From Prochloron sp. SulCav_FS08_3_32_3330 (GTDB taxonomy: Bacteria > Cyanobacteriota > Cyanobacteriia > Cyanobacteriales > DYNF01): 33,049 nucleotides of DNA. Shown here piece after piece: positions 18,139 through 22,133 of this stretch. Location of the stretch: NCBI GenBank assembly GCA_020721205.1, contig DYNF01000048.1, positions 1 through 33,049 on the forward strand. Direction: 5' to 3'. Both the position numbers and the translations under genes were made by a program. A model generated the notes under the pieces. That model worked only from the letters and a program-made list of their open reading frames with translations, was not told the origin of the DNA and ran no database searches. Position 1 is the first letter of the stretch; the number at the start of each line of letters is the position of its first letter.

Positions 18139-18470
18139 AATTGTAGGGGCATGACAGCGATTAATTTTGTCACCAATTTTTCAATCATATATTGTCATGC
18201 CCAACCCCAAAGATCAATTTTAAAATTAATCACAATTTGTAGGGGCATGACATCCTTAAATTTTGTCACCAATTTTTCAATCATATATTGTCATGCCCAA
18301 CCCTAACAATCAATTTTAAAATTAATAATAATTTAATATTATTAATTATTAATTAATGTGGTTTTGATGAGATTTTTTTACAGTTAATTTAATGATGGGG
18401 CGGGGCATGGCATTTTTTAGGTTAATGGTTATATCATAATTAAATGATGCCATGCCCCTACAGATTTTTG
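18139..18470 (+). repeat. Composite GGGGCATGACA repeat, locus 1
   Basis: Two tandem units of 96 bases start with GTAGGGGCATGACA at 18143 and 18239. Each runs through TTTTGTCACCAATTTTTCAA and TGTCATGCCCAACCC, so each unit's ends are inverted. An AT-rich tail (TTAATTAATGTGGTTTTGAT) leads to a third inverted pair: GGGCATGGCAT near 18403 against ATGCCATGCCCC near 18447. The locus fills most of the 466-base gap 18131-18596; the remainder (18471-18596) is AT-rich and holds the hicB upstream region. Related copies are at 21305 and 21969. Confidence 0.85.
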
Positions 18471-18862: not shown

Positions 18863-19189
18863 TAGGGGATGAAGCAGGGTGTTTTCAAAGTCAAATTTTA
18901 TAATTCTTGTGATCTTTATCTGATCGAGTTTTTAGCTTGTTTTTAATGTTAATAAATTAAAAATTATTAAAAAATGAGAGCAAAATTAAAAAATCTAAGT
19001 CGCTTTAGCAGACTTCTGCTATTAGCATCGTCAATTTATTGCGATGCGGTGTAGTGCGTTAAGAGTTAACTCTTTGTAATTTATCCGCAATGAAATAAAT
19101 TTCATTGCTAACAGCTAAAGTCTGCTAAAGCGACTAATAAAATGCAATTTTACCCCGACTTTGAAAACGACCTAGGCGATGAAGCAGGG
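18863..19189. mobile_element. Inverted-repeat element with flanking direct repeats
   Basis: AGTCGCTTTAGCAGACTT (18998-19015) has its exact inverse at 19118-19135, and pairing continues inward with a few mismatches (TTAGCA/TGCTAA). Further out, GTTTTCAAAGTC (18881-18892) pairs with GACTTTGAAAAC (19157-19168). Outside that, TAGGGGATGAAGCAGGG (18863-18879) is repeated directly as TAGGCGATGAAGCAGGG (19173-19189). No coding capacity is visible. The nested inverted repeats flanked by a direct repeat suggest a non-autonomous element or its scar. The outer CAGGGTGTTTTCA recalls the left end of element D. This accounts for most of the 432-base gap 18849-19280. Confidence 0.6.
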
Positions 19190-19277
19190 GAAACCTGAAC
19201 AATGGATGATATTTTAAATTTTAAAATATGTCTTATCAATTTCAATTTTCTAAAAAATTAAAAAAGGATACTAAAAA
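19187..19277 (+). pseudogene. Remnant: antitoxin tail plus toxin start (copy 1)
   Basis: This segment matches 21885-21968 closely. It contains the relic of an antitoxin end (ACAATGGATGATATTTT, now with an in-frame TGA just upstream), then ATG at 19228 encoding MSYQFQFSKKLKKDT, the typical first strand and helix of a RelE-type toxin. Similarity to copy 2 stops after AAAAAAGGATA. The toxin frame then runs out of frame into the kinase gene start at 19281. The relic's AAAAAAGGAT may now act as the ribosome-binding region of that kinase. Confidence 0.7.
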
Positions 19278-19280
19278 ACG

Positions 19281-21182
19281 ATGTCTTATTGTATCAATCC
19301 TAATTGTAAAAATACCCAAAATTCTGATAATCAATTATTTTGTTCCTCCTGTGGATCAGAATTATTAATTCAGGGTAATTATCGAGTGATTAAACCTCTT
19401 GGGGAGGGCGGTTTTGGTAATACTTATGAAATTACTGGACAGGGCAAAACTAAACTTTTAAAAGTGTTAACCAATACTTCTGATAAAGCGGTGGAATTAT
19501 TCCAAAGAGAAGCGAAAATATTAAGTAAAATTAATCTTCCGGGTATTCCTAAAGTTGAGGAAGATGATGATTTTCTCTATTATCCTAAAGATAATTCTCA
19601 ACCTCTCTATTGTTTAATCATGGAGAAAATTGAAGGGATGAATTTAACGGAATATATTAGGGGAAGAAATAACCGTCCTCTTGAGGGTAAAGTGGCTTTA
19701 CAATGGCTTAAAGAATTATTAGAAATATTAGCAGTTATTCATGATCAAAATTTACTCCATCGAGATATAAAACCTAGTAATATTATGTTAAAACCTGATG
19801 GAAAATTAGCTTTAATTGATTTTGGTGCAGTGAAACAAACAAAGGGAACAATCACTGCTAAATCAGGGACGGAAACGGCTACAGGTACGGGTACAAGTAT
19901 TTATTCTGTGGGCTATGCCCCTCAAGAACAAATGGCAGGACAGGCGATTAAACAATCAGATATTTTTGCATTAGGAAGAACTTTTATTTATCTTTTAACA
20001 GCTAAAGAACCTCATGATCCACTGATGTATGATGGTTTAGAAGATCGGATTAATTGGCGTAAATTTGCTAATCAAAATATATCAGAAAATTTGGGAAAAG
20101 TGATTGATCAAATGACTGAAAGATTGGCAAAAGATCGCCCTGATAATGTGAGAAAGCTTTTACAATTATTAAATCCACCTCCCTCCCCATCTCCACCATC
20201 AAAATCAGAGTCCACAGTGGTTTCTTCTCCACCATCAAAATCAAAGTCCACGGTGGTTTCTTCTCCACCATCAAAATCAAAGTCCACGGTGGTTTCTTCT
20301 CCTCCACCTATTCCCAGTCGTCGTAAGTTTTTATTGTTAGCTGGTTATATTAGTTTTGGTTTAGGTGCGACTTTTGTAGGGAGTAAAATATTTGGCTCTA
20401 AGCAATCATCAGTTACAGAAACGCCTATTAGGGAAGAAACTTCCGCACCTCAAGAGTCCTCAAGCGAAAATAATTCCACATTTGATTTAGGAGGGGGTGT
20501 AACTTTAGAAATGGTGAAAATACCCGGGGGTAGTTTTCTTATGGGATCACCCGATAGTGATCAAGATGCTAGTAGTAATGAAAAACCTCAACATCAAGTA
20601 ACGATCGCAGAGGATTTTTATTTAGGGAAATATGAAGTAACTCAAGCACAATATCAGGCGATCATGGGTACAAATCCATCTTATTTTAGCAAAGGTGGAG
20701 ATTATCCAGTAGAAAATGTATCTTGGAATGATGCCGTCGAATTTTGTCAAAAACTTTCGGCAAAAACAGGCAAAACTTTTAAACTCCCCAGTGAAGCTCA
20801 ATGGGAATATGCCTGTCGTGCCGGAACTCAAACCCGTTATTATTACGGAGATGATGCTAGTCAACTAGGAGATTATGCTTGGTATGATGATAATTCAGGA
20901 AATCAAACTCATCAAGTAGGACAAAAAAATCCCAATAATTTCGGTTTATATGATATGATCGGAAATGTTTGGGAATGGTGTGAAGATAATTACCATGATA
21001 GTTATAATAACGCACCAAATAATGAGAATCCTTGGTATAATAGTTCAGAGAATAATCAGAGGATTCTGCGGGGCGGTTCTTGGTTTGATCGTGCTGGAAG
21101 CTGCCGTTCTGCTTATCGGGGCGGGAGCGGCTCTGGCCTCATCCTCGACCTTATCGGTTTCCGAGTTTTCTGTGCCTTGTGA
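19281..21182 (+). CDS. Zinc-ribbon Ser/Thr kinase fused to an FGE/C-type-lectin domain; probable DGR target
   Basis: A 633-residue fusion. A zinc ribbon (C4, C9, C21, C24) is followed by a kinase domain (about 34-298) with GEGGFG (41-46), K61, HRDIKPSN (D162) and DFG (180-182), all intact. A Ser/Pro/Lys linker holds three 12-residue repeats (304-339). A membrane segment starts RRKFLLLAG (347 onward, to about 368). The outer domain (about 393-633) is FGE/SUMF1-type: MVKIPGGSFLMGSP, KYEVTQAQYQAIMG, PVENVSWNDAVEFC, LPSEAQWEYACRAG, MIGNVWEWCEDN and RILRGGSW. Such domains adopt a C-type-lectin fold and often bind ligand rather than catalyse. The last ~38 residues have unusual composition (see the variable-region entry). 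An extracellular variable sensor driving a cytoplasmic kinase is the inferred design. Confidence 0.9.
   Translation: MSYCINPNCKNTQNSDNQLFCSSCGSELLIQGNYRVIKPLGEGGFGNTYEITGQGKTKLLKVLTNTSDKAVELFQREAKILSKINLPGIPKVEEDDDFLYYPKDNSQPLYCLIMEKIEGMNLTEYIRGRNNRPLEGKVALQWLKELLEILAVIHDQNLLHRDIKPSNIMLKPDGKLALIDFGAVKQTKGTITAKSGTETATGTGTSIYSVGYAPQEQMAGQAIKQSDIFALGRTFIYLLTAKEPHDPLMYDGLEDRINWRKFANQNISENLGKVIDQMTERLAKDRPDNVRKLLQLLNPPPSPSPPSKSESTVVSSPPSKSKSTVVSSPPSKSKSTVVSSPPPIPSRRKFLLLAGYISFGLGATFVGSKIFGSKQSSVTETPIREETSAPQESSSENNSTFDLGGGVTLEMVKIPGGSFLMGSPDSDQDASSNEKPQHQVTIAEDFYLGKYEVTQAQYQAIMGTNPSYFSKGGDYPVENVSWNDAVEFCQKLSAKTGKTFKLPSEAQWEYACRAGTQTRYYYGDDASQLGDYAWYDDNSGNQTHQVGQKNPNNFGLYDMIGNVWEWCEDNYHDSYNNAPNNENPWYNSSENNQRILRGGSWFDRAGSCRSAYRGGSGSGLILDLIGFRVFCAL
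20190..20297 (+). repeat. Three in-frame 36-bp tandem repeats in the kinase linker
   Basis: Units at 20190, 20226 and 20262 encode SPPSKSESTVVS, SPPSKSKSTVVS and SPPSKSKSTVVS. They form a flexible linker just before the membrane segment. Copy number could vary by slippage without changing frame. Confidence 0.9.
21066..21182 (+). other. Probable variable region of a diversity-generating retroelement
   Basis: The last 114 coding bases contain only about nine adenines by hand count and are GC-rich, in an otherwise A/T-rich gene. The encoded segment keeps the anchors RGGSW (597-601), CRSA (608-611) and IGFRV (625-629). Between them lie codons such as TTT GAT CGT GCT GGA AGC, TAT CGG GGC GGG AGC GGC and GGC CTC ATC CTC GAC CTT. 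Most third positions are C or T and the first two are mixed, as if AAC/AAT codons of a template had been randomised at adenine. FGE/C-type-lectin C-termini are well-known DGR targets in cyanobacteria. No template repeat or reverse transcriptase is in the window. Confidence 0.75.
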
Positions 21183-21184
21183 AC

Positions 21185-21246
21185 CCTCTTTTTCCTCTTT
21201 TTCCTCTTTTTCCCTTCCGGATCGGAAATTCCCCCTTTGGGGGATC
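21185..21246 (+). promoter_or_regulatory. Pyrimidine repeats and paired hairpins just after the variable region
   Basis: Starting three bases after the kinase stop there are three 9-base CCTCTTTTT units (21185-21211). Then comes a TTCCG/CGGAA hairpin with a GAT loop (21215-21227), then CCCCC-TTT-GGGGG (21231-21243) extended by one T/A pair. Known DGRs need a GC-rich initiation site at the 3' end of the variable region and, in several systems, a downstream hairpin/cruciform. The location fits that. A simple transcription terminator is the alternative. Confidence 0.5.
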
Positions 21247-21264
21247 GATTTATAAAAACATATA

Positions 21265-21304: not shown

Positions 21305-21565
21305 TGAGATGAGTTAATTTTGTTACCAATTTTTCAATCATATTTTGTCATGCCCAACCCCAAAGATCAATTTGAAAATTAATCACAATTTGTAGGGGCA
21401 TGACATCCTTAAATTTTGTCACCAATTTTTCAAATATATATTGTCATGCCCAACCCCAAAGATCAATTTGAAAATTAATAATAATTTGAGATTTTTAATG
21501 ATTAATTAATGTGGTTTTGATAATATTTTTTTTATAGTTAATTTAATGATTGGGTTGGGCATGAA
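21305..21565 (+). repeat. Composite GGGGCATGACA repeat, locus 2
   Basis: This has the same order as locus 1: a left-truncated first unit (from about 21305), a second 96-base unit starting GTAGGGGCATGACA at 21392, the TTAATTAATGTGGTTTTGAT tail, and the start of the third palindrome (TTGGGCATGAA near 21554), where similarity ends. It fills most of the 477-base gap 21183-21659; the remainder, 21566-21659, contains the antitoxin promoter region. Confidence 0.85.
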
Positions 21566-21659
21566 GTTTGAGGGAAGATCAGTTTAGGATCAAAGTTGAT
21601 CGCTTTTGATCAAAAATGCTAAAATTTAGATTAAATAATTAATCAGGTGAGACGAGACT

Positions 21660-21920
21660 ATGATCATACCCAATCAACAACAATTTACCTTAGAATATGC
21701 CCATCAAAATTTTGAGCAAGTTATTGAATGTGCAAAAAAAGAAGCAATTATTTTAACTCAAAATGAAGAAAAGTTTTTCTTAATTAATCAAGAAGCTTTA
21801 GAATCATGGTTAGAAACATTAATCTTATTGCAAGATCAAGAATTATTAAATGATGTTAAGATAGCAAAAAAAGAATATCAACAAGGAGAAACCTTAACAA
21901 TGGATGATATTTTTAATTAA
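21660..21920 (+). CDS. Phd/YefM-like antitoxin, partner toxin truncated
   Basis: An 86-residue antitoxin-like protein: FTLEYAHQNFEQVIECAKKEAIILTQNEEKFFLINQEALESWLETL is the usual Phd/YefM pattern of a small DNA-binding N-terminus. The C-terminus ends LTMDDIFN, typical of the toxin-binding tail. The toxin gene that should follow starts five bases later but breaks after 18 codons, so the antitoxin is now orphaned. It may still act as a repressor or neutralise related toxins. A tail of a second copy is found at 19187-19227. Confidence 0.8.
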   Translation: MIIPNQQQFTLEYAHQNFEQVIECAKKEAIILTQNEEKFFLINQEALESWLETLILLQDQELLNDVKIAKKEYQQGETLTMDDIFN

Positions 21921-21925
21921 AAAAT

Positions 21926-21982
21926 ATGTCTTATCAAATTCAATTTTCTAAAAAATCAAAAAAGGATATTGATCAATTTTAA
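21926..21982 (+). pseudogene. Truncated RelE-type toxin start (copy 2)
   Basis: ATG at 21926 encodes MSYQIQFSKKSKKDIDQF and then stops. The first 15 residues look like a RelE/ParE toxin start. From about 21969 the sequence is the composite repeat (GATCAATTTTAAAATTAATA), which supplies the stop. The toxin body is missing. Confidence 0.75.
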
Positions 21983-22133
21983 AATTAATAATAATTTGAG
22001 ATTTTTTATTGTTAATTAATGTGGTTTTGATGAGATTTTTTTAACCGTTAATTTAATGATTGGGTTGGGCATGGCATTTTTTTAGTTAATGGTTGTATCA
22101 TAATTAAAGGATGCCAGGTTTCCCCTACAGATT
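21969..22133 (+). repeat. Composite GGGGCATGACA repeat, locus 3 (right part)
   Basis: It starts at ATCAATTTTAAAATTAATAA, then TTAATTAATGTGGTTTTGAT, and ends with an imperfect inverted pair: TTGGGCATGGCAT near 22063 against GGATGCCAGGTTTCCCCTACA near 22108 in two parts. Only the right-hand part of the locus 1 unit is present. It joins directly to the broken toxin and abuts the mraY stop at 22139. Confidence 0.8.

What the first reader, a model, noticed from the sequence alone, without database searches (positions are those of the whole stretch)
21066..21182. A kinase-fused lectin domain carries a diversity-generating retroelement variable region
The last ~115 bases of the 19281-21182 gene differ sharply in composition from the AT-rich gene: about nine adenines in 114 bases and a high GC content. 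Anchors RGGSW, CRSA and IGFRV are kept, while the codons between them look like AAC/AAT codons randomised at adenine (AGC, GGC, CTC, ATC, GAC, TAT, GAT). Known DGRs mutate adenine positions of a template and commonly target FGE-type C-type-lectin C-termini in cyanobacteria. No reverse transcriptase or template lies here, so this would be a remote, trans-acting target: a hypervariable outside sensor fused to a Ser/Thr kinase.
Basis: partly seen in the sequence, partly recalled or inferred. Interest (0 to 1): 0.88.

Follow-up and report, generated by a model that had tools for sequence, protein, structure and literature searches.

The report
Lectin-kinase written by a missing template
A cyanobacterial signalling kinase ends in a lectin-like domain whose tip carries the signature of a mutation-generating retroelement that sits on another contig of the same genome; such remote kinase targets are already known, but the exact template that wrote this one is not in the assembly.

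Summary
Bases 21069-21182 hold 10 A in 114 (window mean 39, sd 7.6) and nearly the highest GC of the whole window. The gene is a Ser/Thr kinase fused to an FGE-type C-type-lectin domain.

The genome has one complete diversity-generating retroelement (DGR), on contig C135: lectin target, bAvd, reverse transcriptase and template TR1. TR1 wrote its cis target and two remote genes with A-restricted changes (p about 1e-8 each).

TR1 did not write the window gene. Anchors and spacing differ from TR1 but match a second kinase-lectin gene on C204: of 40 codons, 26 are identical without a silent change and the other 14 all change the amino acid. They look like two products of one lost or unassembled template; none was found.

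The same hairpin element follows the variable region in the window gene and five other lectin genes, and nowhere else in 4.73 Mb.

It is a DGR target served in trans, of the published cyanobacterial kinase-CLec class (PMC7517822). New details: the orphan VR pair and the strict pairing of hairpin and VR.

The parts
19281..21182 (+). gene: Ser/Thr kinase - membrane segment - FGE-type C-type-lectin (CLec) fusion, 633 aa
   Evidence: ORF; Pfam Pkinase E=4.8e-29 aa 34-288 and FGE-sulfatase E=3.1e-56 aa 410-629
19380..20144 (+). protein kinase domain (GEGGFG, HRDIKPSN and DFG motifs visible in the translation)
   Evidence: Pfam PF00069; motifs read
20190..20306 (+). linker with 3 copies of a 36-base repeat (SPPSKSKSTVVS)
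   Evidence: family D4
20319..20384 (+). putative membrane-spanning segment with twin-arginine-like motif SRRKFLLLAG
   Evidence: hydropathy and motif scan; function inferred
20508..21167 (+). FGE-type CLec domain; best solved relative is the DGR variable protein TvpA of Treponema denticola (2y3c, E=5e-37)
21069..21179 (+). DGR variable region (VR): anchors RGGSW / CRSAYR / GFRVFCAL around two variable blocks
   Evidence: alignment with the C204 VR
21084..21101 (+). variable block 1: TTT GAT CGT GCT GGA AGC (GCT is shared with C204)
21120..21155 (+). variable block 2: 12 codons, of which TCT, GGC and the first ATC are shared with C204
21184..21217 (+). pyrimidine-rich tract between the VR stop codon and the hairpin; a similar tract follows many VRs of relatives
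21218..21252 (+). 35-base element present exactly 6 times in the genome, each time just downstream of a VR
21230..21244 (+). hairpin TCCCCC-TTT-GGGGGA, candidate DGR target-recognition hairpin or cruciform
   Evidence: compare PMC3240598

Best explanation
The 3' end of the kinase gene is a DGR variable region that is, or was, rewritten in trans. A template RNA homologous to it (call it TR2) was reverse transcribed with random bases at its A positions, and the cDNA replaced the stretch from about CGGGGCGG to the stop codon, guided by the conserved 3' end and the hairpin just downstream. RT and bAvd would be those of the single DGR found, on contig C135. The outcome is a kinase whose lectin tip carries randomised ligand-contact residues. 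Shown here: the VR anatomy, the DGR in the genome, remote targeting of sister genes by TR1, the shared hairpin, and the DGR-like pattern of change between the two orphan VRs. Inferred: that TR2 existed with A at the variable sites, that the C135 RT served it, that the lectin faces outward, and that it gates or directs the kinase. I think it more likely (about 2 to 1) that TR2 has been lost or replaced and this VR is now frozen than that TR2 lies in an assembly gap.
For: One DGR in the genome: RT (over cut-off), bAvd (over cut-off), TR1 and a TPR-CLec cis target. TR1 against its three VRs over 125 bases: A sites changed 13/31, 16/31, 12/31; non-A sites 1/94, 4/94, 0/94; Fisher p about 1e-8 each, so the machinery acts in trans. 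Window VR against C204 VR: 26 codons identical with no synonymous change and 14 codons all nonsynonymous, while upstream in the same two genes 42 of 98 amino-acid-identical codons differ silently (p=4.7e-6). The 24 base differences fall 12/8/4 on codon positions 1/2/3 against 61/47/91 upstream (p=0.008). The hairpin element occurs 6 times in 4.73 Mb, allowing 3 mismatches, always after a CLec VR. Order-level relatives have the same layout with 75 of 76 TR/VR mismatches at A in six pairs.
Against: No TR2 in the assembly. Four of the 24 differences between the two orphan VRs are at third codon positions (TTT/AGC, GAT/AAC, GGA/AGG, CTT/AGG), which needs unusual template codons such as AAA, or two slightly different templates, or some ordinary drift. 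No population data show that this VR changes today. The window VR lacks the AGGACT-like 3' end seen in many other cyanobacterial VRs.
Confidence: 0.85

Rival explanations
1. The VR is a live target: TR2, with or without a second RT, exists in the organism but fell into an assembly gap.
For: 209 contigs; two of the six hairpin copies lie near contig ends (C82 is only 3,081 bases long with its VR at one end, C204 ends about 520 bases after the VR). In Thiohalocapsa PB-PSB1 the VRs of DGR 7 had no matching template in the reference genome, but long reads showed structural variants with intact RT and TR (PMC10907252). The anchors show no silent drift.
Against: Completeness 99.36%; the known cassette assembled in the middle of a 28.8 kb contig; only one DGR RT and one true bAvd were found.
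Confidence: 0.3
2. TR1 of contig C135 itself diversifies the window VR.
For: Same RT, homologous CLec domain and the same hairpin downstream; the reconstructed TR2 is 73% identical to TR1. The >50% identity rule of PMC7517822 would formally assign it (59 of 117 bases equal).
Against: 34 of 58 mismatches are at non-A positions of TR1, the spacing differs by two codons and the 3' ends, where homing must find homology, are unrelated. Homing from TR1 would have overwritten these anchors.
Confidence: 0.04
3. Ordinary paralogues: the two VRs diverged by point mutation under diversifying selection, with anchors kept alike by selection or by gene conversion; no retroelement was involved.
For: FGE-type domains are common in cyanobacteria (9 in this genome), and their C-terminal motifs are conserved in many proteins.
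Against: Zero silent differences in 26 anchor codons against 42 of 98 upstream; gene conversion would have homogenised the variable codons as well, yet all 14 differ; the A-poor, GC-rich block is unlike the rest of the gene; sister genes with the same hairpin are demonstrably DGR-written.
Confidence: 0.08
4. The hairpin element is only a transcription terminator or a dispersed repeat carried along with the gene duplications.
For: It lies directly downstream of stop codons; folding energy is not exceptional against shuffles. Duplicated genes would carry their 3' flank.
Against: It is not followed by a T run in all copies, is found nowhere else in the genome, and relatives have stems of different sequence in the same place, followed by TCG in most cases (8 of 23 VRs, 0.1 expected).
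Confidence: 0.2

Closest known systems
Cyanobacterial DGR remote variable proteins, kinase-CLec class (Vallota-Eastman et al. 2020, PMC7517822)
   Same: Ser/Thr kinase joined to a C-terminal CLec domain with the VR at the 3' end, located away from the DGR; RT with bAvd and template elsewhere; multiple paralogues per genome.
   Different: Their remote targets were assigned to the genome's template at >50% identity. Here the window VR and its C204 sister share a template that is not in the assembly, while other genes match the resident template. That paper only suggests that cis elements such as cruciforms may mark remote targets; here the hairpin tracks the VRs one to one.
Thiohalocapsa PB-PSB1 multi-locus DGRs (PMC10907252)
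   Same: Related clade of cellular DGRs with kinase and other signalling targets, trans targeting, and VRs with no template in the reference genome.
   Different: There long reads recovered the intact template as a structural variant; no such reads are at hand here.
BPP-1 phage DGR target site with hairpin/cruciform (Guo et al. 2011, PMC3240598)
   Same: A hairpin a short distance downstream of the VR is needed for efficient homing.
   Different: BPP-1 prefers an 8-10 bp stem with a 4-base loop; here it is 6 bp with a TTT loop, in a bacterial genome, shared by several unlinked genes. Function untested here.
TvpA, Treponema denticola DGR variable protein (PDB 2y3c)
   Same: Best solved relative of the CLec domain, with the VR at the same C-terminal place.
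   Different: No kinase domain is reported in the solved chain; different organism and template.

Membership tests
DGR (diversity-generating retroelement) present in this genome | DGR-type reverse transcriptase | tested here: met
   C135:20225-21280, RVT_1 E=6e-26; 57-68% identical to RTs of order-level relatives, several of which sit beside TR/VR pairs
DGR (diversity-generating retroelement) present in this genome | accessory protein bAvd | tested here: met
   PF22296 E=1e-17, 65 bits, over cut-off
DGR (diversity-generating retroelement) present in this genome | template repeat whose differences from the VR are restricted to A | tested here: met
   TR1 against the cis, C159 and C12 VRs
Window gene as a DGR target (variable protein) | VR at the 3' end of a CLec-fold domain | tested here: met
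Window gene as a DGR target (variable protein) | template in the same genome matching at non-A positions | tested here: not met
   Not in the assembly; the assembly is in 209 contigs, so the organism may still hold one
Window gene as a DGR target (variable protein) | variation between copies confined to positions that would be A in a common template | tested here: inconclusive
   24 differences against C204; 20 at codon positions 1-2 fit AAC/AAT-type template codons, 4 at position 3 need further A sites or drift
Window gene as a DGR target (variable protein) | hairpin or IMH-like cis element downstream of the VR | tested here: met
   Identical 35-base element after 6 CLec genes only; that it works in homing was not tested
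Active, ongoing diversification of the window VR | VR differs between cells or strains | not testable with these tools
   No second strain of this genus or family is held (all relatives listed were 'same order')
Hanks-type Ser/Thr kinase | kinase domain with catalytic motifs | tested here: met
   PF00069 E=4.8e-29; HRDIKPSN and DFG

The most novel reading that the evidence does not exclude
One resident RT with one kind of hairpin address serves successive templates: the window and C204 VRs (and perhaps the C82 VR) are fossils of earlier templates, frozen because the present template no longer shares their 3' anchor, so that a genome stores a memory of past template versions in unlinked signalling kinases.
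Probability: 0.35. Interest if true: 0.6.

Novelty: new member of a known kind. Interest (0 to 1): 0.42.

Why it matters
Remote kinase targets of cyanobacterial DGRs are known, but how a remote gene is recognised and kept in register with the template is not settled. Here a single genome offers a natural contrast: six CLec genes with one identical hairpin element, three of them matching the resident template, two sharing an absent template and one of another kind, and a further gene (C183) with a TR1-type VR but no hairpin and more non-A changes. This makes two ideas testable: that the hairpin marks a gene for homing in trans, and that template turnover freezes old targets.

Tried and rejected
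Second DGR RT: the only other RT (C36) has RVT_N, GIIM and HNH domains and is a group II intron protein. Second Avd: C138:210-467 scores far better as a 23S rRNA IVP protein. TR1 as the source of the window VR: rejected by anchors, spacing and 3' end. TR2 in the own genome: BLAST with the VR, an A-tolerant pattern with 3 mismatches, BLAST with a reconstructed template and a translated search all failed. TR2 in viral contigs: none. TR2 in 391 genomes of the order: many templates of the same type, but none of the displayed ones whose translation I read has the FRVFCAL end. A named-genome scan gave only distant cyanobacterial CLec genes plus one contig labelled Lentisphaeria. Folding energies of the hairpin were not exceptional against shuffles, so the case for the hairpin rests on distribution and conservation. 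No structure prediction was run, since the sequence match to TvpA was already strong.

Full report
What is there. The gene 19281-21182 encodes 633 residues: a weak zinc-ribbon match, a protein kinase domain (aa 34-288), a Pro/Ser linker with three 36-base repeats, a hydrophobic segment preceded by SRRKFLLLAG, and an FGE-type C-type-lectin (CLec) domain (aa 410-629). The last 114 bases have 10 A and 58.8% GC, the A-poorest place in the window and among its GC-richest. The best solved relative of the CLec domain is TvpA of Treponema denticola (2y3c, E=5e-37), a known DGR variable protein, and the alignment runs through the variable region.

The DGR of the genome. Contig C135 carries, in order, a TPR-CLec gene with a VR, an antitoxin-like ORF, a bAvd gene, a DGR reverse transcriptase and a template, TR1 (L025:4307 onward). 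TR1 matches the cis VR and remote VRs in a coiled-coil-like protein with CLec domain (C159) and in a kinase-CLec protein (C12). Over 125 bases the A positions of TR1 are changed 13, 16 and 12 times of 31, the non-A positions 1, 4 and 0 times of 94 (p about 1e-8 each). A fourth TR1-type VR in a kinase-CLec gene on C183 has 15 A and 6 non-A changes and lacks the hairpin. So this genome has a DGR that reaches unlinked genes, kinases among them.

The window VR has another template. Against TR1 it differs at 58 of 117 positions, 34 of them not A in TR1, with 11 codons where TR1 has 13 and a different 3' end. Its true sister is the VR of a kinase-CLec gene on C204. Over 40 codons, 26 are identical to the base and 14 differ, every one nonsynonymous. 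In the upstream part of the same CLec domain 42 of 98 amino-acid-identical codons carry silent differences (p=4.7e-6), and the codon-position pattern of differences is also shifted to positions 1 and 2 (p=0.008) (both tests treat codons as independent, which is only roughly true). Selection on the protein would not remove silent differences, and gene conversion would have homogenised the variable codons too. Copying from one template with randomised A sites gives exactly this pattern. Four third-position differences fit less well; they ask for A at third positions, two template versions, or some drift.

The template is missing. BLAST with the VR, a pattern in which each base may be itself or A, with 3 mismatches, BLAST with a reconstructed template and a six-frame search with its translation gave only the CLec genes and TR1. 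There is no second DGR RT and no second true bAvd. The assembly has 209 contigs and is rated 99.36% complete, so a gap is possible. Thiohalocapsa PB-PSB1 offers a precedent: VRs without a template in the reference, with intact template-bearing structural variants in long reads (PMC10907252).

The hairpin. Directly after the VR, beyond a pyrimidine-rich tract, lies CGGATCGGAAATTCCCCCTTTGGGGGATCGATTTA. Allowing three mismatches it occurs six times in the 4.73 Mb genome and each copy follows a CLec VR: C115 (window), C204, C82, C135, C159 and C12; the reversed control pattern gives none. Among 23 VRs of relatives, 8 have a perfect GC-rich stem of 6 bp or more with a short loop in the same place (0.1 expected from mononucleotide shuffles), with different stem sequences (TCCGCC/GGCGGA, GTCGCC/GGCGAC, CCCGCC/GGCGGG, TCGCGC/GCGCGA, TCTCGC/GCGAGA), mostly followed by TCG. 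The relatives were collected by sequence similarity and a few may be related to each other, so the count is not of independent events. In BPP-1 such a hairpin is needed for efficient homing (PMC3240598), and cruciforms were proposed as marks of remote targets in cyanobacteria (PMC7517822). The distribution here supports that idea without proving it.

How it most likely works. RNA from a template is reverse transcribed with random bases at A, and the cDNA replaces the VR of any gene that has the right 3' anchor and hairpin. The lectin tip of the kinase thereby samples ligand-contact residues. In the window gene and the C82 sister a hydrophobic segment with a Tat-like motif sits between kinase and lectin (SRRKFLLLAG, PRRDVLKAIG), which suggests a cytoplasmic kinase and a folded, exported lectin; the other CLec proteins tested, C204 among them, have no such segment. 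Ligand, outward topology and effect on the kinase are inference. PMC7517822 proposes that the CLec domain either gates the kinase or chooses its substrates.

What is known and what is new. Kinase-CLec remote targets in cyanobacterial DGRs are published (PMC7517822), so this is a new member of a known kind. Apparently undescribed, as far as the papers read here go, are the orphan pair whose anchors point to an absent template next to a working DGR with another template, and the one-to-one pairing of hairpin and VR in one genome.

Noticed in passing
19179-19270 and 21877-21968: A 92-base direct repeat (89% identical), the end of a YefM/Phd-like antitoxin gene plus the start of what looks like a RelE-like toxin gene, lies on both sides of the kinase gene; longer repeats at 18308-18452 and 21461-22116 also flank it. 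The kinase gene may have entered a duplicated toxin-antitoxin region.
   Followed up: no
L070:2080-2211 (contig C183): A kinase-CLec gene with a TR1-type VR but without the downstream hairpin has more non-A differences from TR1 (6) than the hairpin-bearing VRs (0, 1, 4): perhaps a retired target.
   Followed up: partly
L027:123-2123 (contig C82): A third kind of VR (RGGSWYLNSDSCRSAFRSWIGLRNSDIGFRVFPPSEA) in a membrane-type kinase-CLec gene, with the same hairpin but no template seen for it either. The reading frame runs on through the hairpin.
   Followed up: partly
21184-21217 and the same place in relatives: A pyrimidine-rich tract (CCCTYTT-like units, variable copy number) stands between the VR stop codon and the hairpin in this genome and after many cyanobacterial VRs. 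Function unknown.
   Followed up: partly
L085: A contig labelled Lentisphaeria MAG matched the VR anchor pattern of cyanobacterial CLec genes; transfer or mis-binning, not examined.
   Followed up: no
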